NCBI GenBank assembly: GCA_016934295.1
Contig: JAFGTD010000154.1
Coordinates: 1-38,257 of the forward strand
Source of the DNA: Acidobacteriota bacterium
GTDB taxonomy: Bacteria > Acidobacteriota > UBA6911
DNA: 38,257 bases
Reading direction: 5' to 3'
A model generated the notes under the pieces. That model saw only the letters and a list, made by a program, of their open reading frames with translations. It did no database searches and had not been told where the DNA came from. Both the position numbers and the translations under genes were made by a program. Positions 1-36,881 of this stretch are shown piece after piece (the first letter of the stretch is position 1; every line of letters starts with the position of its first letter).

Positions 1-1172
1 AGCGTCTCGCGCACATGCTGCTGGCGGACGGGCATTCCGTAACCCATTTTGTTTCCTATGCAAAAGCCCCGCTCGAATCCCACATGACGCTTCTCCAGGA
101 GGCCCCGGGATTCACTTATTGGAACGGGCAGATTCGCCAGCTCTCCAAATGGGCCGGATTCCCCGAGTTTCTTGCTTTGGATTACCGGATATTCCGACGG
201 AAAGCCGGTTCCATCGACCTGCTTCATGTCCACGATATTTCGGGCGCGTTCTCCCCCGTAAGCTTGCGTCGTCTTGCGCGTGAGGTGCCGACGGTGTGGA
301 CATATCACGACTGTTCTCCCTTCACCGGCGGATGTATTTATCCCTTTGACTGCAGACGCTTCGAACGACAATGCGGTCCGTGCCCGGAGATGGGCCGATG
401 GCCGCTCAATAATCGGTTTGACCGAACGCGCTGGATGCAGCGTTTCAAGCTGGGTTTTGCAAATACGTATCGTGCCGTCGCTCCCAGCCGCTGGATGGCC
501 GATATGGCCATGGCTACCGGCCGCATAAGAATGCGCCCCACCGTAATACCCAATTCCGTCGACACGGAAGTTTTCAAGCCGCGCGGTAAGATGGAATGCA
601 GGCAACGGCTGGGACTTCCGACCGCAACCCCCATTGTTTGTTTCGTCGCCAATTTCCTGTGGGATCGGAGAAAAGGAGCGAAGTATTTTGTCGAATCCCT
701 CCGGCGGTTGCTGCCGCTGAAACCTTTTCTGTTGATAGTGGGTGGAGAGGATGCGGCGGTGATGAAGGCATTGCGCGACTGGCCGGCGAAATTCACCGGA
801 TTCATTTCGGATTTCAAGCTGCTGTCCCAATGGTATGCCGCGGCGGATTTTATGGTGATGCCGGCGGTGGCGGACAACCTGCCTACCGCCTTGATAGAGG
901 CCATGGCATGCGGAACGCCTACGGTTGGGTTTGCCACCGGGGGTATTGTGGACCTTGTGCAACACGATCATAATGGATGGCTCGCCCCGACGGGGTCGGT
1001 GGACGATCTGGTGGAAGGGATGCGCCTTGCGCTGAACGATACAGCCAGACTTTCGGCCTGGAGTCAGGCGGGGCTTGCACGCGTTCGCGAGGAATATTCG
1101 GATAGGTTGTTTCTTGAAAGACACTACCGTATTTATGCGGAGACAATGAGGTGGTACAAAACAAGGCGATGA
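1..1172 (+). CDS. Glycosyltransferase family 4 (GT-B), 5'-truncated by window edge
   Basis: This is a retaining GT4 glycosyltransferase that would transfer a sugar from a nucleotide donor onto a growing glycan in the cytoplasm. The frame is open to the left edge: codons from position 3 read RLAH before the first ATG at 15, and the text matches the start of a GT-B N-domain (LAxxLxxxGHxVT). The true start is therefore outside the window. The C-terminal donor domain shows the PNSVDTEVFKP segment, a VGGED strand and the nucleotide-sugar loop NLPTALIEAMACGTPTV followed by FATGGIVDLV, all usual for GT4. The stop overlaps the next start by ATGA, so it heads a translationally coupled operon as far as is visible. 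Acceptor and donor cannot be told from sequence. Confidence 0.9.
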   Translation, partial: RLAHMLLADGHSVTHFVSYAKAPLESHMTLLQEAPGFTYWNGQIRQLSKWAGFPEFLALDYRIFRRKAGSIDLLHVHDISGAFSPVSLRRLAREVPTVWTYHDCSPFTGGCIYPFDCRRFERQCGPCPEMGRWPLNNRFDRTRWMQRFKLGFANTYRAVAPSRWMADMAMATGRIRMRPTVIPNSVDTEVFKPRGKMECRQRLGLPTATPIVCFVANFLWDRRKGAKYFVESLRRLLPLKPFLLIVGGEDAAVMKALRDWPAKFTGFISDFKLLSQWYAAADFMVMPAVADNLPTALIEAMACGTPTVGFATGGIVDLVQHDHNGWLAPTGSVDDLVEGMRLALNDTARLSAWSQAGLARVREEYSDRLFLERHYRIYAETMRWYKTRR

Positions 1173-1546
1173 AAATGCTGCGAGTTATGATCTTCGGCGC
1201 CGGAGAGGGTGGACGCCGTGCGATGGAATACCTGCGGGAAGATTGCCGGGTTGTCTGCATTCTCGACAATGATCCTGAAAAACATGGCACTACCATGGAC
1301 GGGATTCCCGTTTGCAACCCCGATCGGGCTTTGGAACCGGATGTGGACCAGATTCTTATCGCGAGTTTTTACAGCAGTGAGATTTTTGAACAGCTGCTGG
1401 AGATGGGAGTCGATGTTCATAAGATAGAGGTTCTGGATTATGAGCTGCTGCAGGGCTGCGAAAAATTCCCGGCGGGAATCCGCAATCTTTTGATCGTATT
1501 GGGGGTGCTGGCGGCCGCTTTAATTCTATGGGTATGGTTTCGATGA
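1169..1546 (+). CDS. Small Rossmann-fold nucleotide-binding protein with C-terminal membrane anchor
   Basis: This 125-residue protein starts at the ATG that overlaps the previous stop (ATGA, 1169-1172). An in-frame GTG at 1151 is possible but less likely. Residues 5-100 form a Rossmann-like unit: MIFGAGEGG (glycine-rich loop), VCILDNDPEKHG (acidic end of the second strand), GIPV, then DQILIAS. This resembles the N-terminal nucleotide-binding part of CapD/FlaA1-like and NeuD/PglD-like sugar proteins. There is no catalytic epimerase or acyltransferase domain. The last 20 residues (LLIVLGVLAAALILWVWF) form a single membrane helix ending in Arg. It probably binds a nucleotide or sugar nucleotide at the inner membrane. 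Comparable domains occur in the genes at 14997-18197 and 24471-25181. Confidence 0.75.
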   Translation: MKMLRVMIFGAGEGGRRAMEYLREDCRVVCILDNDPEKHGTTMDGIPVCNPDRALEPDVDQILIASFYSSEIFEQLLEMGVDVHKIEVLDYELLQGCEKFPAGIRNLLIVLGVLAAALILWVWFR

Positions 1547-5285: not shown

Positions 5286-5343
5286 ATCAATCATTTTGTG
5301 AATGATTAATAGTTCAAGTTCCCTATTTCTTCTGCCGATGAAG
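5286..5343 (+). promoter_or_regulatory. Conserved intergenic element, copy 1 (25-bp inverted repeat + CTGCCGATGAAG box)
   Basis: The 290-bp gap between glf and the methyltransferase contains an imperfect 25-bp inverted repeat at 5286-5310 (arms ATCAATCATT / AATGATTAAT, spacer TTGTG). CTGCCGATGAAG follows at 5332-5343. The same arrangement with the same spacing recurs at 6413-6470. It is probably an operator or promoter-associated site for the downstream gene. No clear sigma70 or sigma54 promoter could be read. A 35-codon open frame starts at the box's ATG (5338) and ends before 5450; it could be a leader peptide or chance. Confidence 0.55.
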
Positions 5344-6412: not shown

Positions 6413-6470
6413 ATTAATCATTTTCTGAATGATTAATGAGTGAAGGTTTGTTCCATACCTGCCGATGAAG
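6413..6470 (+). promoter_or_regulatory. Conserved intergenic element, copy 2 (perfect 25-bp inverted repeat + CTGCCGATGAAG box)
   Basis: Positions 6413-6437 are a perfect inverted repeat with 10-bp arms ATTAATCATT / AATGATTAAT around TTCTG. The right arm runs directly into AATGAGTGA (6435-6443). CTGCCGATGAAG lies at 6459-6470, exactly the distance seen in the copy at 5286-5343. It sits 180-240 bp upstream of the SDR start, in the position of a transcription control site. The bound factor is unknown; the winged-helix regulator at 24471-25181 is a candidate because AATGAGTGA recurs at its own start. Confidence 0.6.
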
Positions 6471-15000: not shown

Positions 15001-18000
15001 TGCAGATTGACTCCCGTACCGGATAGTAGACTGGAAATCCTGTCGAAAAATATATTTCTTTTTGAAGAAAGAGGAGGCAGGCCGTTTTCAATTTTCTTTA
15101 CGATACTGGAGCGATTTTTACAAATATTCCGGTAGAGGGCTTCAAACCTCTGCAGGTAATTATTCTCTTCAAGCCGGATACTGCAGTCGGCAAGATCGAA
15201 CAGCCCCAGGGCTCCTGCATTCTTGTGCTCGTAGTAGGCGCCGTGCGCAAGGCTTATTACAGGAACCCGTTCGCCCAGGGCAAAAATAATCGGGTGATGC
15301 TTCATCGTGATACAGGCATGGCTTAGGGAAATCAGGGCGCGGGCGATGCGGTAATCCTTGTTGTAGCGCAGCATTCGATAAGCAGCGTCGGGCAGGTTCT
15401 TTTCCAGATCAAGAAGCGTTTGTTCGTCTATCGCGGTCATGGGAAGACCGACGACGGGAACAGGATCCAGTTCCGCGAGGCATCGCAGGATGGCGGCAGC
15501 CCGGTCCAGAAGCCAACGTCGATCCGAGTCTTCGTTAAAGCCCCAATAATGCAGATTCAGTACGATAAAGCGCGAATCGACGATGGAAGGATTTATGTTC
15601 GAAACGTCAAGCAAACTTCGAAGCGCGCCAATCCCGGACGGATTTTCCATGAAAAGGGCGTCGTCGCAAGTTGTCATAACCTTTGACGGGCTTATTCCAA
15701 GGTTTTGCAGTGCTTCAACAGATGCATTCGAATCACGGGTTGCAACCAGGTGCGCCCGCTTAAGGCCCCAACCGGCCAGCCATCGTGAAAAACGGCTGTT
15801 CCAGACGCCGATGGTTTGTCCCGAAAGCACACTGGGCGTGCCGAACAAATGCGCCAGCCTGAGAACAAACATTCCATCCCAAAGACGTGAAAGAGTTTTT
15901 CCTGTGAGATAGCCCCCGCCGCAGAAAAAGATCAGGTCCGCTGTAGCGATTTCGTACAACAAAGCCGTGCGGCGCGCGTTGACAAACGAAATCGGTATGC
16001 GGTTCTTGATGAACCAGGCATTGATGAGTAGCCAGAAGGAGCGAAACAGGAATCTAAATTTTTTGCCCCGCGTAGGAAGAGAATATAGATCGGATATGTC
16101 CAGGTCGTAGAATGCGAGCCTCGAAGCCTCCCCGACGAGACACGCATCATGCAGAAAGTGCGTATCTCGGAGATCCGGCGTAAGGACCTTAATCAGGTAA
16201 TCCGGGAAACGCCGGGACAGTTCCCGCAGGGTAGCAGCGAGCTGTGCTTCATCGCCGGCATTTCTATAGCCGTATCCGCCGGCTACCAGGATCTTTTTCT
16301 GCCGGTACCATGGGCTTTTGCGTTTGGGCCGGTGCTCGCGACTTTTTATCCATGGAAGCTTTTTAATCCAATCCTGAAGATTGGTCTTCCCTTCCAGCGC
16401 CCAATCCTTTTGGGCACGAAGTAGCAGAGGATTTACAGCAAGAATTCGGATCGATGCGCTGAGTTCCAAATCGGTTATCTGTCGCCGGATCTGTTCCTCA
16501 AAAACGCTGGCAATAAGAATCAACAGGTCGGCTTCCCGTTCTTTTTTCAGAAACGACGGCGAACGGACCGGCACTCCTAATAGGGATGTGTCCTGTTTTC
16601 GGGGATCGCTGTCCACGAAGTAGCCGATGCGTCCGGCAAGAGCCCGACCGACATCCCGCCCGAGAGATCCCGTGCCCCAGCAGACTATAAGAGAACGGCG
16701 TTCATGGAGTATCCTGCGCCATAAAAACCTTCTTAGCCGATTCATTCCCCGCTTTGTCGTTGTTTCCGCATCGAAATTTTCAGCGGGCAGAGTGTGTTTG
16801 GGTCTTCCCATCAGTGTAAAAAGCAGGCGCCGTGTAATCTTTGCCGTAGTGTGTGTATAGCAGATCCTGGACAGAAACGAAGCCAGGCGGTATCGCAGAT
16901 AGCCGCTTTTGCGATTTTCCCGACTCCACCAAGGTTTGTTGAACCGGTCCATTATGCGGATTTGTTTATACTCGACGGTCGGTTCCTGGCAGTGTGCGAC
17001 CACGGATTTGTCGAGCGGCTCGAGTGTCAGTTCGGTATTGTTTTGAAACGCGTCCCGTAAATTCGAATTCCTGAGGATTACGATACTTTTCCCAAGGGGA
17101 TCCGATGCCCAGTGGCCCCAGGCATCCTTGACCGTTATATCGGCGCGGTGCCCCCAGAAATCGCTGCATAAGTGACAGCAGCCCATGGCGAACCAATACT
17201 CGCGCCAGGCATGGGTGAACAGAGACCGATAGCGGTTTTCAAGGGATACCTGTCTGCCGGAGACGTCAAACCGGATATTGAAATTATTGGCATCCGGAAT
17301 GCCGTCCTTGTTCCGAAGGTTGGCATCGAAGGAGACTCGGGGAGAAAGCCCGACCGTCTCCGCCAGTAAATCAATGAATTGACCGTTGACGTTATGGCTG
17401 CAGGCCAGAGCGACCGTCACCAGCGAAATGGCGCTATACTCCGGTTTTGCTTCCCAAAGATTTCGAACGGCTTTAATTACACAGGGCACGCCAACGACTG
17501 CCACCCGTCGTATAGAACCCGGAAGGAATTCGAGGACATTGTTATAACAGATAGGATGGTAGAAAGATCCCCGGCGCGCTTCGCACTCCTGCGCTGTGGT
17601 GCTTATCCCGGCCCTGAAATGAGGCTTGCCGATGCTTCCCTCTATCGGCTCTCCATGAATGACGGCATCCGCGAGCCCTGTTTTCAAAAGATGACGCAGC
17701 AGCGCGGTTACGGCTCCCCCGGATGCGCTCCGATGCCGCCGTTCAGGTTCAGGATCCCATGCCAGAAAGAAATCGGCTCCATCCATGCCGAAAGTCCACG
17801 GATCGCAAGAGGAAATCCGTTCCGCGTCCTCCCGAAGAGTCCGCGGATTATTGGGGCAGGTGGAAGAGCAGAGCCCGCAGTCGGTGCACAGCGATTCATC
17901 GACCCTTGGGATGTATTCGCACCGGTTTGTCCAGTGGATGGTGACTGCGTTAACGGGACAGATGACAGCGCAACAGCCGCATCCGATACAGGTGCCGGCA

Positions 18001-18197: not shown

Positions 18198-18323
18198 CGA
18201 CAGATTTCATGGGAATCAATAGAAAATATTCTTTTCATTGAATAAACGCGTAAACGGCAGGATTGCGCGGAACAACAAGAAAAAATAAAGATTTCAAGAA
18301 TTTACGACGATGAAGTACATGTT
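18184..18323. promoter_or_regulatory. Divergent control region framed by a perfect 16-bp inverted repeat
   Basis: AACATGTACTTCATCG at 18184-18199 is the exact reverse complement of CGATGAAGTACATGTT at 18308-18323. The two frame 108 bp of AT-rich DNA between divergent genes. Each copy contains the CGATGAAG box seen at 5336-5343 and 6463-6470, and each begins a frame reading MKYML. The leftward one is the annotated N-terminus of the 1066-residue protein. The rightward one is a 28-codon open frame ending at 18396. Probably a bidirectional promoter/operator region. No clear -35/-10 pair was read. Confidence 0.5.
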
Positions 18324-18347: not shown

Positions 18348-18362
18348 TCACTCATTGAGTGA
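18348..18362. promoter_or_regulatory. 15-bp palindrome containing the AATGAGTGA-type 9-mer
   Basis: TCACTCA-T-TGAGTGA is a perfect palindrome 50 bp upstream of the rightward gene. Its left part TCACTCATT is the reverse complement of AATGAGTGA found at 6435-6443 and is repeated at 25187-25195 at the start of the winged-helix regulator gene. The most economical reading is an operator for that regulator. Confidence 0.45.
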
Positions 18363-18411
18363 ACGAACCGGCGTGAATTCGAGAGCGGTTCGATAGTGCA
18401 GAAGGCCGTTT

Positions 18412-20706
18412 ATGTTTATCTCTTTTCTCCTTCCATATGTCGATAGAGGGCAAGGCCCCATTTATCATTGGGTGCCTGCGGCGCAAATGTCCAGACTGGA
18501 TTCCGGGGACATAGTTTTAATTGCGGACGAAGGGTATTTCTCCGCGCCTTACGACTGGGGAAGGACGGAATATTTACATGGATTTCACTATGAGTATCCG
18601 GATATAGAGAAGTGGAGGAAGATTCGAAAAATAACCCTGGGAGGGGATATTTTTGGAGAGCTTGAAACCGGCAGTCTTTCTATGCTGGATGCCTTCCGCA
18701 CCCTGCTTTCCCGGGATTATCCCCCTTTAGGCAATGCGCTCCGGAGAATATTCGACGATCTCTGCCGGGCTGAAAAGCCTGAAGGGATATTGACCTGGTG
18801 CAATATACCAAGCCTGGAACTGGCTGCCGCCGAATACGGTCTGCCCGTGATCCACAATGAATTCGGTCCGTTTCGCCCGCCGAATTACACGGGTACTATC
18901 TATTTTGATTTCAAGGGAGTGAATGGAAATACCAGCGCAGCCCGGGATATGTCGGCATTTATGGACGAGGTGCGCCACGATGAAACGTTCCGTCCGTTGG
19001 ATATGGAGGAACTGCGACAGCTGTTCATGGTGGATCCGGCCCGCGCGCTGCAACGCCCCCCGATGCTCTTTAAAAGCGGCGTTGCACTGCAGGTCGAAGA
19101 CGACTCCAACATGCTCGCGTTCAATCGCGGCATGAATAATTTCGAGCTTATCTTCGCCGCACGCAAGGGATTGCTGCCCGGAGAACTCTTGATCCGCCGG
19201 CATCCCAAGGGTTATCTCGAATACGGGTCGTCCCTGGGAGTCCTGGATAATTCCGCAGATTCCATCGAATTCATTTCCCGGTGCGAGCGTGTTTTTTGTA
19301 CGAATTCGAGTGTCGCGTTCGAGGCCATGCTCATGGAAAAACCGGTGAAACTTTTCGGGGATTCTCCCATTGCCTGCCTGTCTCATGAGAAATACAGGGA
19401 ACTCTCACCCCGGGAACGGCTCCTCTGTTTAAACTACATGTTTATTGGATACCTTGTTCCGGTTTCCCTTCTCTTTGACCGGGATTACTATCGATGGCGG
19501 CTGGAATTCCCCACTTTCCGTGAAATCTACGACCGGCACCTGGATTATTTCCGCCGGTGTGGTGCGGATGCATCCACGAACGACTTGAATACCAGGGCGG
19601 AAAAACCGGCCGAAAAATATGTGCACGGATTTTCAAATCCGAATGACGTTCTATGGTTCGGCATGCATCTGTACCAGGAATCCAGGCATGCGGAATCCAG
19701 GGAATGGTTCGAAGCCGCCAGGCGCTGGCCGGACGTTCATCCCGATATTGCCGCGGAAGCCTGTTTCCACCTCGCGGAAATCTTTCGTGTGCAAGGGGAT
19801 GAAGAGCGATGGCGGCAATACAGCCTCGAGGGCATCCGTGTATTGGAAGCGTGGAGATCGGAAGACGTCCGTCGTCCGTTAAAAATCGGGATGCGATTTT
19901 ATCTGTTGGGTGAGTGGCTGCGGAGCCGGCCTTTTTTCCAAACCGTGGCGGACTCTCCGGATGTGGATGCCGAAAAGAGGACCGAAGCGAACCTGATGCT
20001 GGCCAGAATTCACTATCAACTGGGAGAAATGGCTCCCTGGGCTTCTCTTCTGGCTCGGATTATTGAAGAAAAAGGTATTTCCTATCCCCAGCCCTGGGAG
20101 CTTTTCGAACTCAGCCGCTGGCATTACGGGCGAGGCGATCGAGAACAGAGTCGCAGGGGATTTGAACATTTAATCGAATCCAATTTAGTGACGGAAAGCC
20201 GGCTGGTCGAGGCATATGTCTGTCTGGCGGATATTTACAGCCGGGAAGGTTGCCAGGATAAGCGGGAATGCCTGCTGCGATCGGGGATCGAAATTATGGA
20301 AGCAATCGATCCCAAAAGCAATTCCATGGCGCTGCTCCTTGCTGGATGGTTCCTTGAACTGGGAGATCGGGCCGGCAGCCTCCACTGGCTTGAATACATA
20401 CATAATCTACTGTATGAAAATTACTGGTCGGATCACGATGCATACCAAATAGCATCCCTTTTTAAGAGAACGGGGAAACACGAGTCAGCCGTTGCATGGT
20501 TCCAGCGTGTTTTAAATACGGCGGAATCGGAATCGGTTCGGGCCGGAGCGTTTTTTCATCTCGGCGAGTTGGCCCTGCGGCAAAAGGATTCTTCCCGGGC
20601 TCGGGACTATTTAAAAAAATGCCTCGAACTGAATCCGCAGCACCGTAAAGCACAGGTTTTTTATACGCAGATTTTGAATGGAGCCGTTCCTGTCCCGGAT
20701 CCATAG
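18412..20706 (+). CDS. Capsule-type glycosyltransferase (GT-B-like) fused to TPR repeats
   Basis: The protein has 764 residues. The first ~400 resemble capsular polysaccharide synthesis transferases of the KpsC/KpsS broad group. RRHPKGYLEYGS is followed by IEFISRCERVFCTNSSVAFEAMLMEKPVKLFG, the phosphate/nucleotide loop in which a surface Asn-Ser-Ser precedes a helix. The family assignment is only moderate. Residues ~415-760 are helical repeats of TPR type: WFGMHLYQESRHAESREWFEAA, CFHLAEIFRVQGDEERW, QIASLFKRTGKHESAVAWFQRVL and FFHLGELALRQKDSSRARDYLKKCLELNPQHRKA. The latter matches the tails of the GT4 and WbsX proteins. It is divergent from the 1066-residue fusion gene and is followed by a radical SAM gene 26 bp downstream. 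Confidence 0.72.
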   Translation: MFISFLLPYVDRGQGPIYHWVPAAQMSRLDSGDIVLIADEGYFSAPYDWGRTEYLHGFHYEYPDIEKWRKIRKITLGGDIFGELETGSLSMLDAFRTLLSRDYPPLGNALRRIFDDLCRAEKPEGILTWCNIPSLELAAAEYGLPVIHNEFGPFRPPNYTGTIYFDFKGVNGNTSAARDMSAFMDEVRHDETFRPLDMEELRQLFMVDPARALQRPPMLFKSGVALQVEDDSNMLAFNRGMNNFELIFAARKGLLPGELLIRRHPKGYLEYGSSLGVLDNSADSIEFISRCERVFCTNSSVAFEAMLMEKPVKLFGDSPIACLSHEKYRELSPRERLLCLNYMFIGYLVPVSLLFDRDYYRWRLEFPTFREIYDRHLDYFRRCGADASTNDLNTRAEKPAEKYVHGFSNPNDVLWFGMHLYQESRHAESREWFEAARRWPDVHPDIAAEACFHLAEIFRVQGDEERWRQYSLEGIRVLEAWRSEDVRRPLKIGMRFYLLGEWLRSRPFFQTVADSPDVDAEKRTEANLMLARIHYQLGEMAPWASLLARIIEEKGISYPQPWELFELSRWHYGRGDREQSRRGFEHLIESNLVTESRLVEAYVCLADIYSREGCQDKRECLLRSGIEIMEAIDPKSNSMALLLAGWFLELGDRAGSLHWLEYIHNLLYENYWSDHDAYQIASLFKRTGKHESAVAWFQRVLNTAESESVRAGAFFHLGELALRQKDSSRARDYLKKCLELNPQHRKAQVFYTQILNGAVPVPDP

Positions 20707-20732: not shown

Positions 20733-21785
20733 GTGGTTGTGTTCCATAGCCCTCCGACCAAAATAGGCATTCATCCGACAAGCAGGTGTAACCTGAAATG
20801 TCGTATGTGCGATACGGGGTATAGGGGATCCGGAGCGGAAAGCCTGCAGCGGAATTTTGCCCTTCGTCGTTCATCGTACAGCAATGAAATGCCCATTGAT
20901 AAATGGGAAGAGGCGATCGACCAGATCCGTGCGATTGCTCCCGGAGCTCCCTTGAGTGTCAGCGGCGGCGAACCTTTTTTATATCCGGACATCGTCAGGC
21001 TGCTTGCATCCATTATAAACGCCGGTATGGAATTAAGAGTGGTTACCAATGGGACTCTTCTTGGGCCCCATGTTGCGTCGCTTTTGCAGGCTTTAAACGG
21101 AAGAACCGCAACACTGGTATTTTCCCTGGATGGGCCCGAGCATATACACGACAAGGTCCGTGGCGTTCGCGGAGCCTATTTACGGCTCATCGAAACGATA
21201 GAGGACCTGGCGAAGCATGGGGATTTTTGTAAAATCAATATAACGACGACAATCAACGATGTGAACTGTTCCCGCCTGTTCGATACCGTGAAAGCAATGC
21301 TGGACCGATACGGCGATCGTATATTCACGTACTCCCTGTACCATCCCTGGTATCGGAACAACCGTCTTGTCGAAATACACAACCGGGAGTGCAGGGAGTA
21401 CAAAGCCCTGCCCGCAAATTCTCAGGTCATCGATTATCAGGCCATGGACACCGATACCGTCTGGAACGAATTAGAAAAAATCAAAACCATGTACCCGCAG
21501 GTACGGATAGTGCCTCAACTTGACAAGAAAGGCATGGACCTGTATTACCGGTCTCCCGAAACCCCTGTTGTTAAAAATCTGTGCAAAGCCCCGTTTACGA
21601 ATTTACTGATAAATCCGAAGGGCGATGTCCTGGTCAATGCGCTCTGTTTTGCCGGCGTTCTGGGCAATGTACGGGATTCCGGAATTGCAGATATATGGAA
21701 CGGAGAAAAATTCAGGATTTTTCGGGAGCGCATGTCCGAACGGATTTATCCCGGATGCAACCGGTGCTGTGACCTGTTTATGTAA
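20733..21785 (+). CDS. Radical SAM / SPASM-domain enzyme
   Basis: This is a 350-residue radical SAM enzyme. The cluster motif C19-x3-C23-x2-C26 (CNLKCRMC) binds the SAM-coordinated 4Fe-4S cluster. SVSGGEPFLYPD is the usual GGEP SAM-binding motif. FSLDGPEHIHDKVRG follows in the barrel. The C-terminal SPASM/twitch part carries Cys in NLCKAPF, ALCFAG and PGCNRCCDLF, enough for an auxiliary Fe-S cluster. Relatives modify peptides, or dehydrogenate or epimerise sugars and alcohols; given the neighbours, a sugar or glycopeptide substrate is plausible but unproved. The start is GTG at 20733 or 20739, both near GAGG at 20730-20733. It converges with the NHL gene after 25 bp. Confidence 0.88.
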   Translation: MVVFHSPPTKIGIHPTSRCNLKCRMCDTGYRGSGAESLQRNFALRRSSYSNEMPIDKWEEAIDQIRAIAPGAPLSVSGGEPFLYPDIVRLLASIINAGMELRVVTNGTLLGPHVASLLQALNGRTATLVFSLDGPEHIHDKVRGVRGAYLRLIETIEDLAKHGDFCKINITTTINDVNCSRLFDTVKAMLDRYGDRIFTYSLYHPWYRNNRLVEIHNRECREYKALPANSQVIDYQAMDTDTVWNELEKIKTMYPQVRIVPQLDKKGMDLYYRSPETPVVKNLCKAPFTNLLINPKGDVLVNALCFAGVLGNVRDSGIADIWNGEKFRIFRERMSERIYPGCNRCCDLFM

Positions 21786-24470: not shown

Positions 24471-25181
24471 CTATGAAAAGCTGTTTGCCTGATCCCGGTT
24501 ATTATAATAGGACAATGGTTCCGAACCGGCCTTGAGGAATGTTGGGTTGTCCTGTCTTCGGCTTTTATACAGGTAAATAAGTTCTATCCCGCGTTCCGAC
24601 AGGGCGGCGAGGTGTCGGTGCATTTCCTCCGTATTCAGGGTGCCTGCAATAATGACGGCATCGGGAGAGATAAACCGGATCTGCGAAGGATTCACCACCT
24701 CGCGACCACAAAAATCGTTGCCGATCCTTTCGGGATTGTCGTCACAAATTCCCTGAATGCTGATACCGGCCGATTCCAGAGCATGAAACGCCAACTGAGC
24801 CAGGTGCCCGCTTCCGTACAGGACAACCCTCTGCAACGCGGAACTGGCCTGGTTCATGATTCGTGTTCGAATGTACTCTTTGGCGCCGGCAAACATCCGG
24901 GCCATTTCACCGATCAGTTCCGTTTGAAGCGTTTCAAGATGCCGGTCTCCTGAAAGAGTCAGGTGATAGGTGACGCTTTTAACGGATTTGCGGTTGTATT
25001 CCAGCAGGCCGCTGTTGCACAGGTCCTTCATATAGTTGTTAACCATGGCAACAGACAGGGAACAACGGGCGGCAAGTTCCGCCTGTGTGATTCGGGCATT
25101 TGCCGCCACTTCACGGAGGATATTCAACTGATTTAATTTTGGCGACTGAAGATAGAGACTGTGAAGGTCTTTTGTCTGCAT
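24471..25181 (-). CDS. Winged-helix regulator fused to Rossmann-type sensor domain
   Basis: This is a ~236-residue DNA-binding protein. Residues ~18-75 are a winged helix (LNILREVAANARITQAELAARCSLSVAMVNNYMKDLCNSGLLEY, then a YHLTLSG wing). Residues ~117-215 are a Rossmann unit: VVLYGSGHLAQLAFHALES, GICDDNPERIGNDFCGREVVNPSQI, then DAVIIAGTLNTEEMHRHL. This matches the layout of the sugar/nucleotide-binding domains at 1169-1546 and in the 1066-residue fusion. It could therefore read a nucleotide-sugar or cofactor and control glycan genes. The ATG at 25181 is chosen; a GTG at 25190 adds three residues. The 9-mer TCACTCATT at 25187-25195 sits at its start, suggesting autoregulation. Confidence 0.8.
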   Translation of the reverse strand: MQTKDLHSLYLQSPKLNQLNILREVAANARITQAELAARCSLSVAMVNNYMKDLCNSGLLEYNRKSVKSVTYHLTLSGDRHLETLQTELIGEMARMFAGAKEYIRTRIMNQASSALQRVVLYGSGHLAQLAFHALESAGISIQGICDDNPERIGNDFCGREVVNPSQIRFISPDAVIIAGTLNTEEMHRHLAALSERGIELIYLYKSRRQDNPTFLKAGSEPLSYYNNRDQANSFS

Positions 25182-25186
25182 ATTAT

Positions 25187-25195
25187 TCACTCATT
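25187..25195. promoter_or_regulatory. Candidate autoregulatory half-site (TCACTCATT)
   Basis: This 9-mer is identical to one arm of the palindrome at 18348-18362 and is the reverse complement of 6435-6443. Here the second half is degenerate (CAATGGTTCA). It lies on the translation start of the winged-helix regulator, where a bound repressor would block expression. Upstream, the minus strand also carries GTCGATGAG near 25245, similar to the CGATGAAG box. Confidence 0.35.
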
Positions 25196-25386
25196 CAATG
25201 GTTCATGGCGCCCGGCAGGGGGCTAAGATTCAAACCTCAACCGGACTCATCGACGAAAACAATTGAAAACTTTAGGTTTCTTTGTCTAAAGACCTTGAAT
25301 ACGAGGCGCGGGATTGGACGTAATTTATTTACTGTTTTAATGGAGAGGCGGATGGATCAGGAGAGGCGGGTCGGAATGAAAGAATC

Positions 25387-26316
25387 CTATTTTTCTCCGC
25401 TTGCAAGGATCGTTTGAAAATATGGGGGAGCTTCTTCCCGGGCCACTATGCTGATCTCTATTTGCCTGAAACCTGCATCTTCAAGCCAGCGATGCAGGTC
25501 GCTTTCGGCAAAACCGGACCAGCGGTCTCCATAAAGCTCGTGTGCTTTCTCGAAATTGTGTTTGAGTAAATCGAGAATCATTATGCGGCCTTTTTGGCAC
25601 AAAATGCGATGAGCGGCGGCAATGGCGGCAGCCGGATTTTCCGCATGATGCAGCGCCTGGCTCAGGATGGCCAGATCCACGCTGTCTTTTTCTATAGGCG
25701 GATTTTCGAGATCCCCCAGTCGAAATTCCAGGTTGTTCAACTTGTTTTTTCCGGCTTTTGCCGCGCCGAAAGAAACGATTTTTTCCGAATTGTCAACCGC
25801 GATCACTTTCTTGCAGCGGCGGGCCAGCAATTCGCTCAGCAGTCCCTCTCCCGAACCAAGATCTGCAACAGTTAGAGGGGGAAGAATCCGCAGGAGGAGG
25901 TGGCCGAATCCCTGCCAGGACCTGCCCGGTCCGTAAACCCGGTCGAACCGCCCGGCCACCTGGTTGAAATAAACCTGGGCCTGATCGTCTCTCCGTTTAA
26001 GAATGCGTTTCAAATTGATTTGATCCGAAGCATAGTCGGGAAGTTCGCGGGCGCCCGCAATGGCCAGCTTGACAAAATCCGAACCGGATCCATCCAGTTC
26101 AGGGTTTTGTTTATAGTATGTGCGCTTGCCTTCTTTCCTGGATTGAACAACCTCCGAATCCAGAAGCTGGCTCAGGTGCGTGGATATGCGCGACTGCCCC
26201 ATGCCGGTGATTTCCTGCAATTCATGCACCGACAATTCGTTCTTTTCCAGCAGGGAAAGAATGCGCAGGCGGGTCGCGTCGGAAATGGTTCGCAGCAATT
26301 TAAGGGTCGAGGTCAT
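25387..26316 (-). CDS. ArsR-family regulator fused to SAM-dependent methyltransferase domain (SahR-like)
   Basis: The protein has 309 residues. Residues 1-75 are an ArsR winged helix (ISDATRLRILSLLEKNELSVHELQEITGMGQSRISTHLSQLLDSEVVQSRKEGKRTYY). Residues ~145-260 are a Methyltransf_11 domain (VADLGSGEGLLSELLARR, VIAVDNSEKIV, LGDLENPPIEKDSVDLAILSQALHHAENP, LCQKGRIMILDLL). It is divergent from ahcY, and a palindrome lies over the ahcY promoter. ArsR-type SahR regulators of the SAM cycle are established in Desulfovibrio and other Proteobacteria. By analogy this protein probably senses SAM or S-adenosylhomocysteine and represses ahcY. GGAG precedes the ATG by about 7 nt. Confidence 0.87.
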   Translation of the reverse strand: MTSTLKLLRTISDATRLRILSLLEKNELSVHELQEITGMGQSRISTHLSQLLDSEVVQSRKEGKRTYYKQNPELDGSGSDFVKLAIAGARELPDYASDQINLKRILKRRDDQAQVYFNQVAGRFDRVYGPGRSWQGFGHLLLRILPPLTVADLGSGEGLLSELLARRCKKVIAVDNSEKIVSFGAAKAGKNKLNNLEFRLGDLENPPIEKDSVDLAILSQALHHAENPAAAIAAAHRILCQKGRIMILDLLKHNFEKAHELYGDRWSGFAESDLHRWLEDAGFRQIEISIVAREEAPPYFQTILASGEK

Positions 26317-26358
26317 GGATGGCTCCGGAATTAAAATGTCATTTTTTCAATAAATTTG

Positions 26359-26386
26359 TTGACGCAGCCAAAAAATAATATATCAT
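26359..26386 (+). promoter_or_regulatory. Predicted sigma70-type promoter of ahcY
   Basis: TTGACG (26359-26364) and TATCAT (26381-26386) are separated by 16 bp, close to the sigma70 consensus. Transcription from here would start near 26393 and leave a leader of about 80 nt. The -10 element overlaps the left arm of the 26385-26410 palindrome, as expected for a repressible promoter. Confidence 0.55.
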
Positions 26387-26410
26387 CATATCATGATTTG
26401 ACGATATGAT
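26385..26410. promoter_or_regulatory. Palindromic operator in the ArsR-methyltransferase / ahcY intergenic region
   Basis: ATCATATC (26385-26392) and GATATGAT (26403-26410) form a perfect 8-bp inverted repeat with a 10-bp spacer, next to a smaller palindrome ATCATGAT at 26390-26397. It lies between divergent genes and over the predicted ahcY -10 and start site. The adjacent ArsR-type regulator is the natural candidate to bind it. Confidence 0.6.
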
Positions 26411-26471
26411 AAATTTAATTTTGTGAAACAGCCTGAATCTTTTACTCACATGACATTTTGAGGGAAAGCTT

Positions 26472-27929
26472 ATGTCCGCTACAAACGTTGTTCAATCTCA
26501 AAACAAAGCCGGAAAGGTTGCCGGCAATGAGGAATTTGTTGTCAAAGATATCAGTCTTGCCGAATGGGGGCGCAAGGAAATACTGGTTGCCGAGCAGGAA
26601 ATGCCGGGCCTGATGGCTGTGCGGGAAAAATACGGGCCCCAGAAACCGCTTGCAGGAGCACGCGTTACCGGTTCTCTGCATATGACCATAGAAACCGCGG
26701 TCCTTATTGAAACGCTGGTCGAGTTGGGCGCGTCGGTGCGTTGGGCCAGCTGCAATATTTTCAGCACCCAGGACCAGGCGGCTGCCGCTATTGCAAAAAC
26801 CGGAGTGCCGGTCTTTGCTTTCAAGGGAGAATCTTTGGAGGATTACTGGGAATTCACCCTCGCCGCACTCACGCATCCCGGCGACAAAGGTCCGGAACTG
26901 GTAGTGGACGACGGCGGCGATGCCACGCTGCTGCTCCACAAGGGGTACGAAATGGAGCAGGGAAGCGACTGGGTGCATTCACCCAGCGAAGCCCACGAGG
27001 AGAAGGTGCTTAAAAACCTTCTCAAGAAATGCGCGCAACAGCGGCCGGGATGGTTTACCAGGGCGGCGAAGGAGTGGAAAGGCGTCAGCGAGGAAACCAC
27101 GACCGGCGTTCACCGGTTGTACCAGATGCTCGAAGCCGGCAATCTTCTGGTTCCGGCCATTAATGTCAACGATTCGGTAACGAAATCCAAGTTCGATAAT
27201 CTTTACGGATGCCGGGAATCCCTGGCGGACGGGCTCAAAAGGGCGCTGGGTGTCATGATTGCGGGCAAAACAGCCGTTGTCTGCGGTTATGGAGATGTCG
27301 GCAAAGGATGCGCGCATTCGCTGCGGGGCTTCGGGGCTCGCGTTATCGTGACGGAAATCGATCCCATCAATGCGCTGCAGGCGGCCATGGAAGGATTCGA
27401 GGTGACCCGAATAGAAGAAACTTTCGGCGAGGGGGATATCTACGTCACTGCCACCGGCAACTGCGAGGTTATTACGGTGGACCATATGCTTAAAATGAAA
27501 GACCAGGCCATTGTGTGCAATATCGGCCATTTCGACAACGAAATCCAGGTGGAGAAGCTGAACCGGGCGCCCGGAGTTCATAAGGTCAATATCAAGCCGC
27601 AGGTGGACCGGTACGATCTGCCGGGCAAACAGAGCATATATATGCTGGCCGAAGGGCGGCTGGTCAACCTCGGCTGCGCCGAGGGGCATCCAAGTTTTGT
27701 AATGTCGAATTCCTTCACCAACCAGGTTCTGGCCCAGCTGGACCTCTGGGAAAACCGGGCAAAGTACGAACCGGCCGTATACAGGCTGCCGAAGAAGCTC
27801 GACGAAGAAGTCGCCCGTCTGCATCTCGAAAAAATCGGAGTGAAGCTGACGAAGATGACCCGGAAGCAGGCGGACTATATCGGCGTGCCGGTCGATGGCC
27901 CCTACAAGCCGGAGCATTACAGGTACTGA
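26472..27929 (+). CDS. ahcY: Adenosylhomocysteinase (S-adenosylhomocysteine hydrolase)
   Basis: This is an NAD-dependent cytoplasmic enzyme that hydrolyses S-adenosylhomocysteine to adenosine and homocysteine, relieving product inhibition of methyltransferases. The 485-residue length fits the long bacterial form with an insertion. Signatures are [60 protein letters not shown], and [20 protein letters not shown]. The NAD site is [16 protein letters not shown] (~residues 269-284), and the C-terminus is [14 protein letters not shown] sits upstream of the ATG. It is probably controlled by the divergent ArsR-methyltransferase protein through the 26385-26410 palindrome. A strong intrinsic terminator follows. 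The several methyltransferases nearby would generate its substrate. Confidence 0.98.
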
Positions 27930-29491: not shown

Positions 29492-30472
29492 ATGGCGCGC
29501 AGCGATCCTATTGTCCGGCAGTGGTACTTGCTGAGAAAAATTGAGAGCCCGGGAGGAGCGACACTTTCGGAGCTTATAAATGCGGTGCCTTCCGACTATC
29601 CGAGACATCCTCGTACTATCCGGAGAGACCTGGAATCACTCGAACTTTTTTTCCCGATATATACGGAGCGAATAAACGGGCAGACACGCTGGCGATTCGC
29701 GGACGGCTATCGAAATCTTCCGGCCCTCTCATTTTCGCCAAGCGAATTGATGGCCATGATTTTCAGCCGGGACCTTCTCAAGCCTCTGGAGGGAACAGAG
29801 ATTCAAATGTCCCTGGAGGCGGCTTTCAACAAAGCCGCCGCAATACTGCCGCCGGAAGGCATGGCGCATGTGCGTAAAATGCAGCGCTACTTCTCGGTAA
29901 GCCTCGGGCCGCATAAGAATTATCGCGAGCATAAAAAGACCATAGAGATTCTCAGCCGGGCGCTGGCAGAGAAGCGCAGCATTCAGATGCGATACTATTC
30001 CGCCTCCAGCGACGCAACCGGTCGGCGGGAAGTGGACCCCTACAGGATCTGGTATGCCTCCGGGGCTCTGTACCTTGTCGGCTATTGCCATAAGCGCCGG
30101 GATGTCCGGCTGTTTGCCGTCGACCGCATAAAATCCCTGACAATTACCGACCATGCATGGCAGATGCCGCTGGGATTCGACCTCGACAGTTACGTTCAGG
30201 AGGCGCTTGTCGTCATGCGGGGCAATCCGATTGAGGTCGAGCTGCTCTTCGACCGCAAGACGGCTGCATGGGCGAAGGACCGGCTGTGGCATCCCAGCCA
30301 GAAATTGAAGCATTTGAAAGACGGTCGAATGCAGATGAAGCTGCGAGTATCGGATACGCCGGAGTTGATAGGCTGGATCCTGAGCTTCGGAGCGGGCGTT
30401 CGGGTCGTCGATCCGAAGTCGCTACGGAAAAAAATTATAGAGGAAGCCGGAAAGATTTTGGATATGTTGTAA
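29492..30472 (+). CDS. WYL-domain transcriptional regulator
   Basis: This is a 326-residue regulator. Residues 1-75 are a DeoR-like winged helix (VRQWYLLRKIESPGGATLSELINAV, HPRTIRRDLESLELFFPIYTE). Residues ~145-225 are the WYL domain (AEKRSIQMRYYSASSDATGRREVDPYRIWYASGALYLVGYCHKRRDVRLFAVDRIKSL); here the W-Y-L motif reads IWYASGALYLVG. The C-terminal WCX extension follows (VELLFDRKTAAWAKDRLWH). WYL proteins bind nucleic acid or nucleotide ligands and often regulate CRISPR-Cas and other defence operons. Placed 282 bp upstream of cas3 on the same strand, it is the likely controller of the type I-C operon. Its base composition resembles the host genes rather than the AT-richer cas3-cas7 block. 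Confidence 0.92.
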   Translation: MARSDPIVRQWYLLRKIESPGGATLSELINAVPSDYPRHPRTIRRDLESLELFFPIYTERINGQTRWRFADGYRNLPALSFSPSELMAMIFSRDLLKPLEGTEIQMSLEAAFNKAAAILPPEGMAHVRKMQRYFSVSLGPHKNYREHKKTIEILSRALAEKRSIQMRYYSASSDATGRREVDPYRIWYASGALYLVGYCHKRRDVRLFAVDRIKSLTITDHAWQMPLGFDLDSYVQEALVVMRGNPIEVELLFDRKTAAWAKDRLWHPSQKLKHLKDGRMQMKLRVSDTPELIGWILSFGAGVRVVDPKSLRKKIIEEAGKILDML

Positions 30473-30754: not shown

Positions 30755-33226
30755 ATGACCAGTTATATTGCTCACAGTAATCAGGAATTATTTGAGCACC
30801 TTGATGGTGTCGCTGATCTTGCTAAAAAACATGCTCAAAAGATTGGGATGGGGATTTATGGTGAACTTCTGGGACTGCTTCATGATTTCGGAAAATATAG
30901 TGAAGAATTTCAAGAATATATTGAGAATGCGATCAAGAAGAATGACCCGGATTTTAATCCAGACGAAGATGAAGATTTCGAAGACCCGACGGGAAAGAAA
31001 GGCAAGATCGACCATTCAACCGCCGGAGCCCAGTATCTATCCAGCAATATCGGTACTTCCAACGCCCACAAAATTCTCAGCCAGGTGCTTTCCCTTTGTT
31101 TGGTCTCGCATCATTCAGGCCTTATCAATTGCATAACGACAGACAGCACTGGAACCTGGGATTCTTATTCAAAGCGGCTGAGAAAAGAAGACAGAAAAAC
31201 TCATCGGGAGGAATGCTCCAGAAAAGTTGATAGACACATCCTTGGCAAGATAAATTCAATTCTTTCAGATAAGTCCTTAACGAAATCATTTGAAGAAAAG
31301 TGCCGGGGAATTGTTCGTGTTTCTCCTGAAAGAAAGCCAACTTCAACGGTCGCTCAATTTCAAATGGGTTTACTGGTGAGATTTCTCTTCAGCGTGCTTA
31401 TTGACGCTGATCGTCAGGATACTGCCGATTCAGAAAAATCCAATAAAGCGCGGCATAGACAGCAAGGGGATTATAGTCCATGGAGCATCCTGATTGAGCG
31501 ACTAGAAAACAAATATGAAACATTTGAAATAAAAAACCGGGTCGATGAAATCCGCGAAGAAGTATCCGAGAATTGCCTGTTAGCCACGTCGAGAGCAAAG
31601 GGATTATTCACTCTCACGGTACCGACCGGTGGCGGTAAAACACTTGCAAGCCTGCGTTTTGCGCTTCGCCATGCAAAAGAACACGATTTAGATCGAATCA
31701 TCTATATTGTCCCTTTTACGACCATCATTGATCAAAATGCTCAAAGTGTACGAGAAATCCTTGAACCGGAAAAATTCCCTGATGATGCTGGAAAGATCGT
31801 TCTTGAACACCACGCAAACATCGGAGCCGATGCACAAACTTGGAAAGAAAAACTACTGACTGAAAATTGGGATGCACCGGTAGTCTATACTACGATGGTT
31901 CAATTCCTGGAGGCGCTTTTCGGCGCAGGCACCCGTGGTGCCCGCCGGATGCATCAGTTGGCAAACGCTGTCATTGTCTTTGATGAAATTCAAACCCTCC
32001 CGATAAAATGCGTCCACCTCTTCAACAATGCGATCAACTTTCTTGTTGATCACTGTGGGAGCACAGTTGTTCTCTGCACCGCCACACAGCCACTGTTGGG
32101 ATCAGTTGATGAAATAAAAGGGGCTCTTCGCCTTTCAAAAGAGAATGAACTCATGCCGGAAATTGGCAAACTCTTTACTGATTTAAAGAGGGTTCACGTT
32201 CATGACTGCCGCAAATCGCCGGGATGGACATATTCCGAAATAGCGGCGCTCGCGGTTGATCAGGTGAAGCAAAGTGGAAACTGCCTTGTCGTGGTCAATA
32301 CGAAGAAAGCAGCCCGTTTGATTTTCGAGGAGGCCAATAAAGAAGGATATGAGGTTTTTCACTTGAGTACCGGAATGTGTCCCGCACATCGAAAACAAAC
32401 ACTCAAAACGATTCGCCAGCGCCTTTCTGACAAAGAGCCGACCATCTGCATCAGCACCCAACTCATCGAGGCTGGCGTTGATATCGACTTCCGTTCGGTT
32501 GTCCGAATGCTGGCGGGGCTTGATTCCATTGCCCAGGCAGCGGGCCGCTGCAATCGTAACGGCAGTCCGGAATTCGGCAATGTCTTTATTGTTAATCCCA
32601 TTGAAGAGAGCCTTGATTACCTTAAAGACATTGCCGTCGGTAAAGAAAAATCGGTCCGAGTCTTGGATGACTATAAAACTGAACCATTAAAATATGACTG
32701 CGACAGAATTGGACCTAAATTGCTGGATTGGTACTATCAAAATTACTTCTATGATCGAAAAGATTTCATGGATTATCCGGTAAATGCCGGCCGTAACGAT
32801 ACCCTGCTAAATCTGCTTTCAACGAACCACCTTGCTGTTGATGAATTCGGGCGGGCAAACAAAACGATGCCGGATATAGTTCTAAAGCAATCCTTCATGA
32901 TGGCGGCAAAGCTTTTTAGGTCAATTGATGCGCCATCACGAAGCGTTCTTATTCGTTACGGCAAAGAAGGGAACGAACTAGTTTGTCAACTGTGTTCTGC
33001 ATTTGAAGTGGAGAAGCAATATGCCTTAATCAAGAAGGCACAGCAATATTCGGTTAACTTGTTTCCCTATGAATTTGAAGAATTATCGAAAAAGGAATCG
33101 CTTTACCGCGTCCAGGAAGGGACCGAGATATTCTACCTTGATAATGCACACTATAGCAAAATAACCGGCTTATCTTTGGAACCGGTAAATCGGGAGGAGC
33201 AGTTCAAAGATGAAAACATTGCCTAA
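30755..33226 (+). CDS. cas3: CRISPR-associated helicase/nuclease Cas3 (type I-C, HD + DExH)
   Basis: Cas3 is recruited by Cascade to target DNA, where it nicks and degrades it with ATP-driven 3'-5' translocation. The protein has 823 residues. The N-terminal HD nuclease shows H7, LLHDFGK with H43-D44, DHSTAGAQ with H87, and VSHHSGL with H119-H120, all metal ligands present. The SF2 helicase has Walker A TVPTGGGKTLAS (T291-T296), VFDEIQTLP (D410-E411), CTATQPLL, STQLIEAGVDIDF and QAAGRCNRNG. The whole set looks intact, so the nuclease should be active. It is the first gene of the effector operon, and its end overlaps cas5c by 17 bp. AGGA precedes the ATG by about 8 nt. Confidence 0.97.
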   Translation: MTSYIAHSNQELFEHLDGVADLAKKHAQKIGMGIYGELLGLLHDFGKYSEEFQEYIENAIKKNDPDFNPDEDEDFEDPTGKKGKIDHSTAGAQYLSSNIGTSNAHKILSQVLSLCLVSHHSGLINCITTDSTGTWDSYSKRLRKEDRKTHREECSRKVDRHILGKINSILSDKSLTKSFEEKCRGIVRVSPERKPTSTVAQFQMGLLVRFLFSVLIDADRQDTADSEKSNKARHRQQGDYSPWSILIERLENKYETFEIKNRVDEIREEVSENCLLATSRAKGLFTLTVPTGGGKTLASLRFALRHAKEHDLDRIIYIVPFTTIIDQNAQSVREILEPEKFPDDAGKIVLEHHANIGADAQTWKEKLLTENWDAPVVYTTMVQFLEALFGAGTRGARRMHQLANAVIVFDEIQTLPIKCVHLFNNAINFLVDHCGSTVVLCTATQPLLGSVDEIKGALRLSKENELMPEIGKLFTDLKRVHVHDCRKSPGWTYSEIAALAVDQVKQSGNCLVVVNTKKAARLIFEEANKEGYEVFHLSTGMCPAHRKQTLKTIRQRLSDKEPTICISTQLIEAGVDIDFRSVVRMLAGLDSIAQAAGRCNRNGSPEFGNVFIVNPIEESLDYLKDIAVGKEKSVRVLDDYKTEPLKYDCDRIGPKLLDWYYQNYFYDRKDFMDYPVNAGRNDTLLNLLSTNHLAVDEFGRANKTMPDIVLKQSFMMAAKLFRSIDAPSRSVLIRYGKEGNELVCQLCSAFEVEKQYALIKKAQQYSVNLFPYEFEELSKKESLYRVQEGTEIFYLDNAHYSKITGLSLEPVNREEQFKDENIA

Positions 33227-35893: not shown

Positions 35894-35920
35894 TAAAGAA
35901 TTATTGAAGGAGAAATGCAT

Positions 35921-36796: not shown

Positions 36797-36881
36797 GTAG
36801 CTTGCTGAGCGGAGTGCAGAGGTAAAATAGTAATTAAACTATCTCTTATTATCGCATGCTCAAGGATATTTGGGGTGAACG

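What the first reader, a model, noticed from the sequence alone, without database searches (positions are those of the whole stretch)
24471..25190. Winged-helix regulator carrying the same Rossmann unit as two glycan-cluster proteins
Three proteins in the window share a Rossmann layout: G.G..G loop, short beta strand ending in DxxP, G..V..P, then ILIAS or VIIAG. They are the small membrane-anchored protein at 1169-1546, residues ~500-600 of the 1066-residue fusion, and the C-terminal half of this DNA-binding protein. If they bind the same ligand, the regulator could sense a glycan precursor while two biosynthetic proteins handle it. Such a sensor would couple precursor level to expression of the island. 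This is seen as sequence pattern; common ligand and regulation are inference.
Basis: partly seen in the sequence, partly recalled or inferred. Interest (0 to 1): 0.72.

Follow-up and report, generated by a model that had tools for sequence, protein, structure and literature searches.

The report
Flagellum-linked regulator of a sugar-coat island
A small DNA-binding protein beside sugar-chain genes in a flagellated Acidobacteria-type bacterium carries the same nucleotide-binding-type domain as two of the sugar-chain proteins, and its gene and one sugar-transferase gene share a conserved control region that looks tied to the flagellum programme.

Summary
In detail: the regulator's C-terminal half, the small membrane protein and residues 505-579 of the 1066-aa fusion are homologous Rossmann domains. 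The module is common in glycan proteins and also resembles Rex, so a shared ligand does not follow. The regulator is a MarR/AsnC-like winged helix, a long helix, then the Rossmann domain: ordered like Rex, but with another DNA-binding head.

New here: a FliA (sigma28)-type promoter core lies upstream of 12 of 12 regulator genes tested from flagellin-bearing genomes; in 9 of these a conserved operator-like site follows 72-75 nt later. The same pair precedes the GT99 gene at 18412 and its counterpart in a second species. Four homologues tested from flagellin-free genomes lack the core; the family's other branch has a perfect GTTCA-N5-TGAAC palindrome upstream in 6 of 6 loci. Autoregulation is thus a likely family trait.

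Best reading: an autoregulated, flagellum-linked controller of a glycan island whose Rossmann domain senses a nucleotide or nucleotide-sugar. Ligand, sign of regulation and flagellin as glycan target are inference.

The parts
24471..25190 (-). Regulator gene (ORF; likely start ATG at 25181): winged helix + long helix + Rossmann domain
24999..25133 (-). Winged-helix domain, residues 20-64
24849..24956 (-). Long helix, residues 79-114 (likely dimerisation helix, inference)
   Evidence: AF2 model
24567..24836 (-). Rossmann domain, residues about 119-208
25184..25201 (-). Conserved operator-like site before the regulator start (CCATTGAATGAGTGAATA)
25246..25275 (-). FliA/sigma28-type promoter of the regulator (TAAAG-N16-TCGATG)
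25326..25343 (-). Upstream element, possible second operator copy (weak)
   Evidence: score 16.1-16.6; not significant on the GTTCA criterion
18285..18314 (+). FliA/sigma28-type promoter of the GT99 gene (TAAAG-N16-ACGATG)
18348..18365 (+). Operator-like site; 18348-18362 is the perfect palindrome TCACTCATTGAGTGA
18412..20706 (+). GT99-type glycosyltransferase with Capsule_synth and TPR matches, predicted target
   Evidence: counterpart in G009 with the same composite
1169..1546 (+). Small protein: stand-alone Rossmann domain with C-terminal helix, probably membrane-spanning (ORF from GTG 1151)
16461..16685 (-). Rossmann domain, residues 505-579 of the 1066-aa Fer4-FrhB-Rossmann-pyruvyltransferase fusion (14997-18197)
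5313..5342 (+). Further sigma28-like promoter before the methyltransferase at 5502, no operator at the usual offset
   Evidence: score 23.5; highest in 40 shuffled windows 20.8
6413..6437 (.).

Best explanation
The protein is an autoregulating transcription factor of a glycan island. Shown by sequence: a MarR/AsnC-type winged helix joined by a long helix to a Rossmann domain of the superfamily that also supplies modules to glycan enzymes; a sigma28-type promoter and a conserved operator-like site before its own gene; the same composite before the GT99 gene at 18412 in two species; a perfect GTTCA-N5-TGAAC palindrome before the genes of the other branch of the family. Inferred: a dimer binds these sites and represses its own gene and GT99 (the site lies between promoter and start codon); binding of a nucleotide or nucleotide-sugar by the Rossmann domain changes DNA binding, so that glycan genes are expressed only when FliA is active and the precursor state is right; the glycan is perhaps attached to flagellin or used during motility.
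For: Domains and fold. Module homology with controls. Promoter-operator composites: 13 in 333,680 bases (window and L024-L042), 10 before regulator genes (one a truncated paralogue), the others before GT99 (window), GT99 (G009) and a Zn-dehydrogenase (G001); the last three were not in the training sets. Reversed-sequence control: operator scores of 16 or more 0 against 15 real, promoter scores of 12 or more 3 against 15; 9 of each 15 are training sites. Operator pattern exact at 2 places in the whole genome, both here, and a wider pattern at 5 places in 21 genomes, each before the regulator or GT99. Core TAAAG/TTAAG-N16-NCGATN scores 9-11 of 11 in 12 of 12 regulators tested from flagellin-positive genomes (window and 11 others) and 6-8 in 4 of 4 tested from flagellin-negative ones; 6 of the 8 genes with 10 or more, out of 244 genes, are the regulator. 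The genome has FliA over the cut-off beside FHIPEP (FlhA), SRP54-type (FlhF), MinD-like (FlhG) and FliM genes (names in brackets are my reading). Flagellin co-occurs with 10 of 10 strong regulators against 19 of 89 other relatives. Family operator GTTCA-N5-TGAAC: 7 of 7 exact copies in the fetched loci. A Chelatococcus homologue sits between manC-type and gmd genes. Sensor precedent: the WbaP DUF (PF13727) is stabilised by UMP/UDP/UTP and destabilised by UDP-Gal (PMC10942596, passages).
Against: No ligand data. In the PDB the regulator's own Rossmann profile matches NAD(P)-binding proteins best (Rex 5zz5 8.8e-6, 6iaq 6.9e-5, 7xdu 0.0033, 7r09 0.0047); the glycan protein 3nkl comes fifth (0.008). 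The regulator's own site in the window is a poor palindrome: the best palindrome of its upstream region is elsewhere and no better than shuffles (159 of 200), and it matches GTTCA-N5-TGAAC with 3 mismatches, as shuffles often do (235 of 500). The GT99 operator score (19.9) was exceeded in 1 of 40 shuffled windows (21.1); the strength lies in the pairing and its conservation. The window regulator's sigma28 core scores 9 of 11, which 24 of 244 genes reach; single cores mean little. Of 7 genomes with strong regulators among the 21 (G001, G010, G012) have no exact operator match. The flagellin genes of this genome score under 9.5 with the promoter model, none at the flagellin promoter, and only 9 of 11 on the core. 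GT99 is found in only 2 of 60 genomes, own and G009. No flagellin gene was seen in the window. The Deltaproteobacteria homologue L052 shows neither motif. Relatedness inflates the co-occurrence P values.
Confidence: 0.5

Rival explanations
1. Rex-like redox sensor: the Rossmann domain binds NAD(H) and couples redox state to the glycan island.
For: Same domain order; Rex is the best PDB profile match of the regulator's domain (5zz5, 8.8e-6), followed by NAD(P)-dependent enzymes, and the top Foldseek match of the model (3wg9, 2.9e-7); D150 fits the ribose-binding acid of Rossmann NAD sites (recalled).
Against: No match to the Rex winged helix PF06971 among Pfam hits up to E 1, while two true Rex proteins of the same phylum score 62.7 and 59 bits with it; Rex equivalog 17.7 bits against a cut-off of 217, true Rex 231.1 and 193.7 with the same model; the domain is closer to the glycan modules (hhalign 99.3%) than to Rex (88.4%, two-sequence Rex profile); the NFAP segment of Rex seen in L063 and L065 has no counterpart in the aligned regulators.
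Confidence: 0.2
2. The Rossmann domain is only an oligomerisation or protein-contact domain, for example docking on glycan enzymes with the same module, and binds no ligand.
For: The related WbaP DUF forms most of the dimer interface (PMC10942596, passages); the third glycine of the loop is Ala in 14 of 17 aligned sequences.
Against: The first glycine of the loop (G126) and G162 are invariant and D150 is kept in at least 90%; relatives bind nucleotides (PMC10942596, passages).
Confidence: 0.2
3. The conserved sites are bound by another regulator, or act in the 5' untranslated RNA, and the wHTH protein regulates something else.
For: In regulator genes the site ends a few bases before the start codon, where a translation signal would lie.
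Against: At GT99 it lies about 50 bases upstream of the start and is a perfect palindrome; exact matches occur twice in the whole genome; the other branch carries a perfect palindrome before the same gene in 6 of 6 loci.
Confidence: 0.12

Closest known systems
Rex redox-sensing repressor
   Same: Winged helix followed by Rossmann domain; top fold match
   Different: Other winged-helix family, far below the Rex cut-offs (positive controls), long linker helix, sits in glycan islands
TIGR04176 MarR_EPS, EPS-associated MarR-family regulators
   Same: Related winged helix and glycan context; the family's other branch scores up to 65.4 bits
   Different: Window protein 22.8 bits against a cut-off of 88; the 105-position model matched only the winged-helix part
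PF13727 domain of WbaP-type phosphoglycosyl transferases, and 3nkl
   Same: Related Rossmann module in glycan proteins; nucleotide sensing proposed for WbaP (PMC10942596, passages)
   Different: There part of a membrane enzyme, here fused to a DNA-binding head
NeuD/PglB/VioB sugar acetyltransferase N-domain and Methyltransf_14
   Same: Sub-threshold family matches of the Rossmann part (TIGR03570 25.3 bits, PF08484 17.5 bits)
   Different: Below the cut-offs; no acetyltransferase or methyltransferase part

Membership tests
Rex | Rex-type N-terminal winged helix (PF06971) | tested here: not met
   No such hit among families up to E 1; two true Rex proteins hit it at 62.7 and 59 bits
Rex | Score over a Rex equivalog cut-off | tested here: not met
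   Best 17.7 bits against 217
Rex | C-terminal Rossmann fold | tested here: met
Rex | NAD(H)-dependent DNA binding | not testable with these tools
   needs bench work
TIGR04176 MarR_EPS | Score over the cut-off of 88 bits | tested here: not met
   22.8 bits for the window protein; 29.6-65.4 for five homologues
TIGR04176 MarR_EPS | Located in polysaccharide gene clusters | tested here: met
   window, relatives G001, G003, G008, G009, Chelatococcus
PF08484 / PF13727 / TIGR03570 Rossmann modules | Score over the family cut-off | tested here: not met
   PF08484 17.5 against 23.5; TIGR03570 25.3 against 160.8; PF13727 not listed up to E 1
PF08484 / PF13727 / TIGR03570 Rossmann modules | Homology with modules of this superfamily | tested here: met
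FliA (sigma28) regulon | Promoter TTAAG-N16-CCGATA (consensus from PMC3627812, passages) | tested here: met
   9 of 11 in the window, 9-11 of 11 in 12 of 12 regulators, spacing 16; but 24 of 244 genes reach 9
FliA (sigma28) regulon | FliA encoded in the genome | tested here: met
   264 bits, over the cut-off, beside flagellar genes
FliA (sigma28) regulon | Transcription start and FliA dependence | not testable with these tools
   needs RNA data

The most novel reading that the evidence does not exclude
A family of one-component regulators that join a MarR-EPS-type head to the nucleotide-sugar Rossmann module of glycan enzymes, so that the same pool is read by enzymes and by the repressor; one branch has been placed under sigma28 so that precursor supply gates surface (perhaps flagellin) glycosylation only while the flagellum is being built.
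Probability: 0.25. Interest if true: 0.75.

Novelty: new variant of a known kind. Interest (0 to 1): 0.5.

Why it matters
It turns a vague sensor idea into something testable: a named operator and promoter at fixed places, a predicted target, and a defined domain for ligand screening. If the domain senses sugar nucleotides, it would be a transcriptional counterpart of the allosteric nucleotide sensing proposed for WbaP, and would tie glycan supply to flagellar timing in Acidobacteria-type bacteria; one full-text search for Acidobacteria, flagellin, glycosylation and FliA together found no paper.

Tried and rejected
Site 6413-6443 as operator: rejected (not in the top 12, lowest 9.2). Filing as Rex, MarR_EPS or Methyltransf_14: rejected on cut-offs. 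Reading the shared domain as proof of a shared ligand: rejected, since the module is widespread (12 of 99 relatives have a match to the small protein at 1e-3; hosts). Search for a generic palindrome upstream and for GTTCA-N5-TGAAC in the flagellar branch: uninformative there, except one 1-mismatch site in L030 (1 of 500 shuffles) and a 2-mismatch one in L033 (29 of 500). The VIA-align list is filled by the winged helix and says nothing on the Rossmann part. The hhalign comparison A4-A5 is partly circular (two shared rows), and A4 contains rows found with the regulator domain. The six control profiles hold only 1 to 5 sequences, the Rex one 2. In the co-occurrence count I split the 15 relatives with a match into 10 strong (E 2.1e-24 or lower) and 5 weak (4.3e-17 or higher); the 5 weak ones (0 of 5 with flagellin) stayed among the 89 others; one of them, G068, is a methyltransferase's module, not a regulator. 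Structure of the small protein from a single sequence is only fair (pLDDT 71.9). The regulator of L032 (near a contig end) was left out (one search gives it a promoter score of 21.2 and no operator), and that of L038 out.

Literature: ten searches, seen as listings; one search listed 12 of 45. No listed title or abstract start is about this regulator type. Passages were seen of PMC10942596, PMC12802240, PMC5550985, PMC11187230 and PMC3627812; no paper was read whole.

Full report
What was checked. The ORF 24471-25190 (-) encodes a 239-residue protein. Pfam gives HTH_24 (2e-12, residues 20-64) and sub-threshold Methyltransf_14 (residues 110-206) and CoA_binding; NCBIfam gives sub-threshold NeuD_NnaD (residues 122-208), MarR_EPS (residues 20-80) and Rex. 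The small protein (1151/1169-1546) matches the same Rossmann families and, in the PDB, 3nkl (2.6e-5). The 1066-aa protein is 4Fe-4S + FrhB + pyruvyltransferase, with no Pfam match listed between residues 395 and 646.

Homology of the three domains. phmmer among 1757 ORFs links regulator with small protein and small protein with fusion in both directions (E 2e-4 to 8.8e-6); regulator and fusion do not find each other directly. In whole-genome searches the small protein hits the fusion (4.8e-4) and regulators of G013, G057 and G042, and the fusion's domain hits the small protein (6.7e-4). Profile comparison: 99.3%, 98.3% and 99.8% (the last is partly circular). Controls in one script: six other nucleotide-binding proteins of the window gave 0.0-0.1% against the regulator profile and at most 15.2% against the other two; Rex gave 88.4%, 96.8% and 82.8% (control profiles of 1-5 sequences, Rex of 2). 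In PDB profile searches the regulator's domain matches Rex first, then NAD(P)-dependent enzymes, then 3nkl; the profiles of the other two modules match 3nkl first, then Rex, and also a mycarose C-methyltransferase, VioB and perosamine acetyltransferase. So the domains belong to one Rossmann superfamily frequent in glycan proteins. Hosts found include GT2, Glycos_transf_4 with CoA_binding_3, FkbM and other methyltransferases, Capsule_synth and radical SAM, and two Rex proteins.

Distribution. Of 99 relatives, 15 have a match at 1e-3 (16 of 100 with the own genome); in G068 it is a methyltransferase's module. The named collection returned 10 loci, nine in Acidobacteria MAGs and one in a Deltaproteobacteria MAG; the window's organism is inferred from that. 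On Chelatococcus plasmids a homologue (27% over 134 residues) annotated only as winged helix regulator lies between mannose-1-phosphate guanylyltransferase and GDP-mannose dehydratase. A tree of 20 sequences splits the family in two (100/99, midpoint root): one side has the 13 sequences from flagellin-bearing genomes plus the Deltaproteobacteria one, the other G015, G025, G063 (two), G075 and Chelatococcus.

Promoter and operator. The region upstream of the regulator is conserved in patches: a box TAAA-N16-GNCGATNA and, 72-75 nt further, CATTGAATGAGTGAA just before the start codon. The pair is found at 9 of the 12 regulators of the flagellar branch that one search tests, and before a truncated paralogue in G012; L033 has core and operator but was not paired, L034 and L035 have the core and an operator-like site before or over the -35 box (in L035 the site is weak, 8.1). 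The same pair stands before GT99 in the window (offset 63) and in G009 (offset 62), about one helical turn shorter, and before a Zn-dehydrogenase in G001 (offset 75). GT99 and its upstream sites were not in the training set. Between window and G009 the 14 bases ACTCATTGAGTGAA are unchanged while the flanks differ. In the own genome the operator pattern has 2 exact places, both in this window, and 39 against 4 in the reversed control at up to 2 mismatches (the pattern was written with these sites in view). Among 21 genomes a slightly wider pattern has 5 exact places, each before the regulator or GT99, control 0; 3 of the 7 strong-regulator genomes there have none. The promoter pattern within 2 mismatches has 3 places in the genome, 2 of them these, though at up to 3 mismatches its count is close to the control (18 against 16).

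Sigma factor. The FliA consensus TTAAG-N16-CCGATA (PMC3627812, passages) fits 12 of 12 tested regulators from flagellin-positive genomes with 9-11 of 11 bases at spacing 16; four tested from flagellin-negative genomes reach only 6-8. Of 244 genes of 200 aa or more in these loci, 24 have 9 or more and 8 have 10 or more; 6 of those 8 are the regulator, while the window's own scores 9. The genome encodes FliA beside FHIPEP, SRP54-type, MinD-like and FliM genes and has three Flagellin_N matches; the two strong ones carry a 9-of-11 core upstream, one at spacing 15, but do not fit the longer promoter model. Strong regulators occur only in flagellin-bearing relatives: 10 of 10 against 19 of 89 (Fisher 1.3e-6; 8 of 8 against 2 of 6 within the family, 0.015), uncorrected for descent.

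Operator of the other branch. GTTCA-N5-TGAAC occurs 7 times in 363,577 bases of the window and fetched loci (0.35 expected for random sequence), every time within 180 bases upstream of a regulator (L036, L037, L038, L040 twice, L041, Chelatococcus L149). By eye it follows a TTGAC...TATAAT-like promoter in L037, L040 and L041. This is independent support that these proteins control their own genes. The flagellar branch has a different, partly related site (RYTSA-N5-TGAAY by eye), not significant on that criterion alone.

Mechanism. Shown: domains, conserved sites, their placement, co-occurrence with flagellin. Inferred: the regulator binds the sites, represses, and is released by a ligand. The best ligand guess is a uridine nucleotide or sugar nucleotide, from the WbaP DUF (UMP, UDP, UTP stabilise, UDP-Gal destabilises; PMC10942596, passages), from the NeuD/PglB/VioB similarity and from the place of the Chelatococcus gene among GDP-mannose genes; NAD(H), by analogy with Rex and by the PDB ranking, is the main rival. 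Flagellin as acceptor of the glycan is a guess from the promoter type.

Verdict. Observation confirmed; interpretation partly supported; regulation now better founded than ligand. New variant of a known kind.

Noticed in passing
25387-27929, and L024, L025, L026, L027: An ArsR-methyltransferase fusion and an AdoHcyase gene flank the regulator in the window and in 4 relatives, while fusion, radical SAM and (outside G009) GT99 genes are not found there: the island seems to sit at a fixed site beside ahcY.
   Followed up: partly
14997-18197: 1066-aa fusion of 4Fe-4S, FrhB N and C, Rossmann module and polysaccharide pyruvyltransferase; no other match at 1e-20 in the window and L024-L042.
   Followed up: partly
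30755-38257: CRISPR-Cas genes (Cas3, Cas5d, Csd1, Cas7, Cas4; type I-C by my reading) up to the contig end, preceded by a WYL-domain regulator at 29492-30472.
   Followed up: no
5313-5342: Third sigma28-like promoter before the methyltransferase at 5502, without the operator at the usual offset.
   Followed up: partly
25326-25343 and 18231-18248: A second element about 54-68 nt upstream of both sigma28-like promoters, resembling the operator; could mean looping.
   Followed up: partly
L025:14615-15676: In G008 the gene right after the regulator is a GT2 with the same Rossmann module at its C-terminus.
   Followed up: partly
L024:804-2003: The GT99 counterpart in G009 is a 399-aa ORF, against 764 aa in the window; the search notes a TAG inside the match.
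   Followed up: no
20733-21785: Radical SAM/SPASM gene directly after GT99, possibly in its operon.
   Followed up: no
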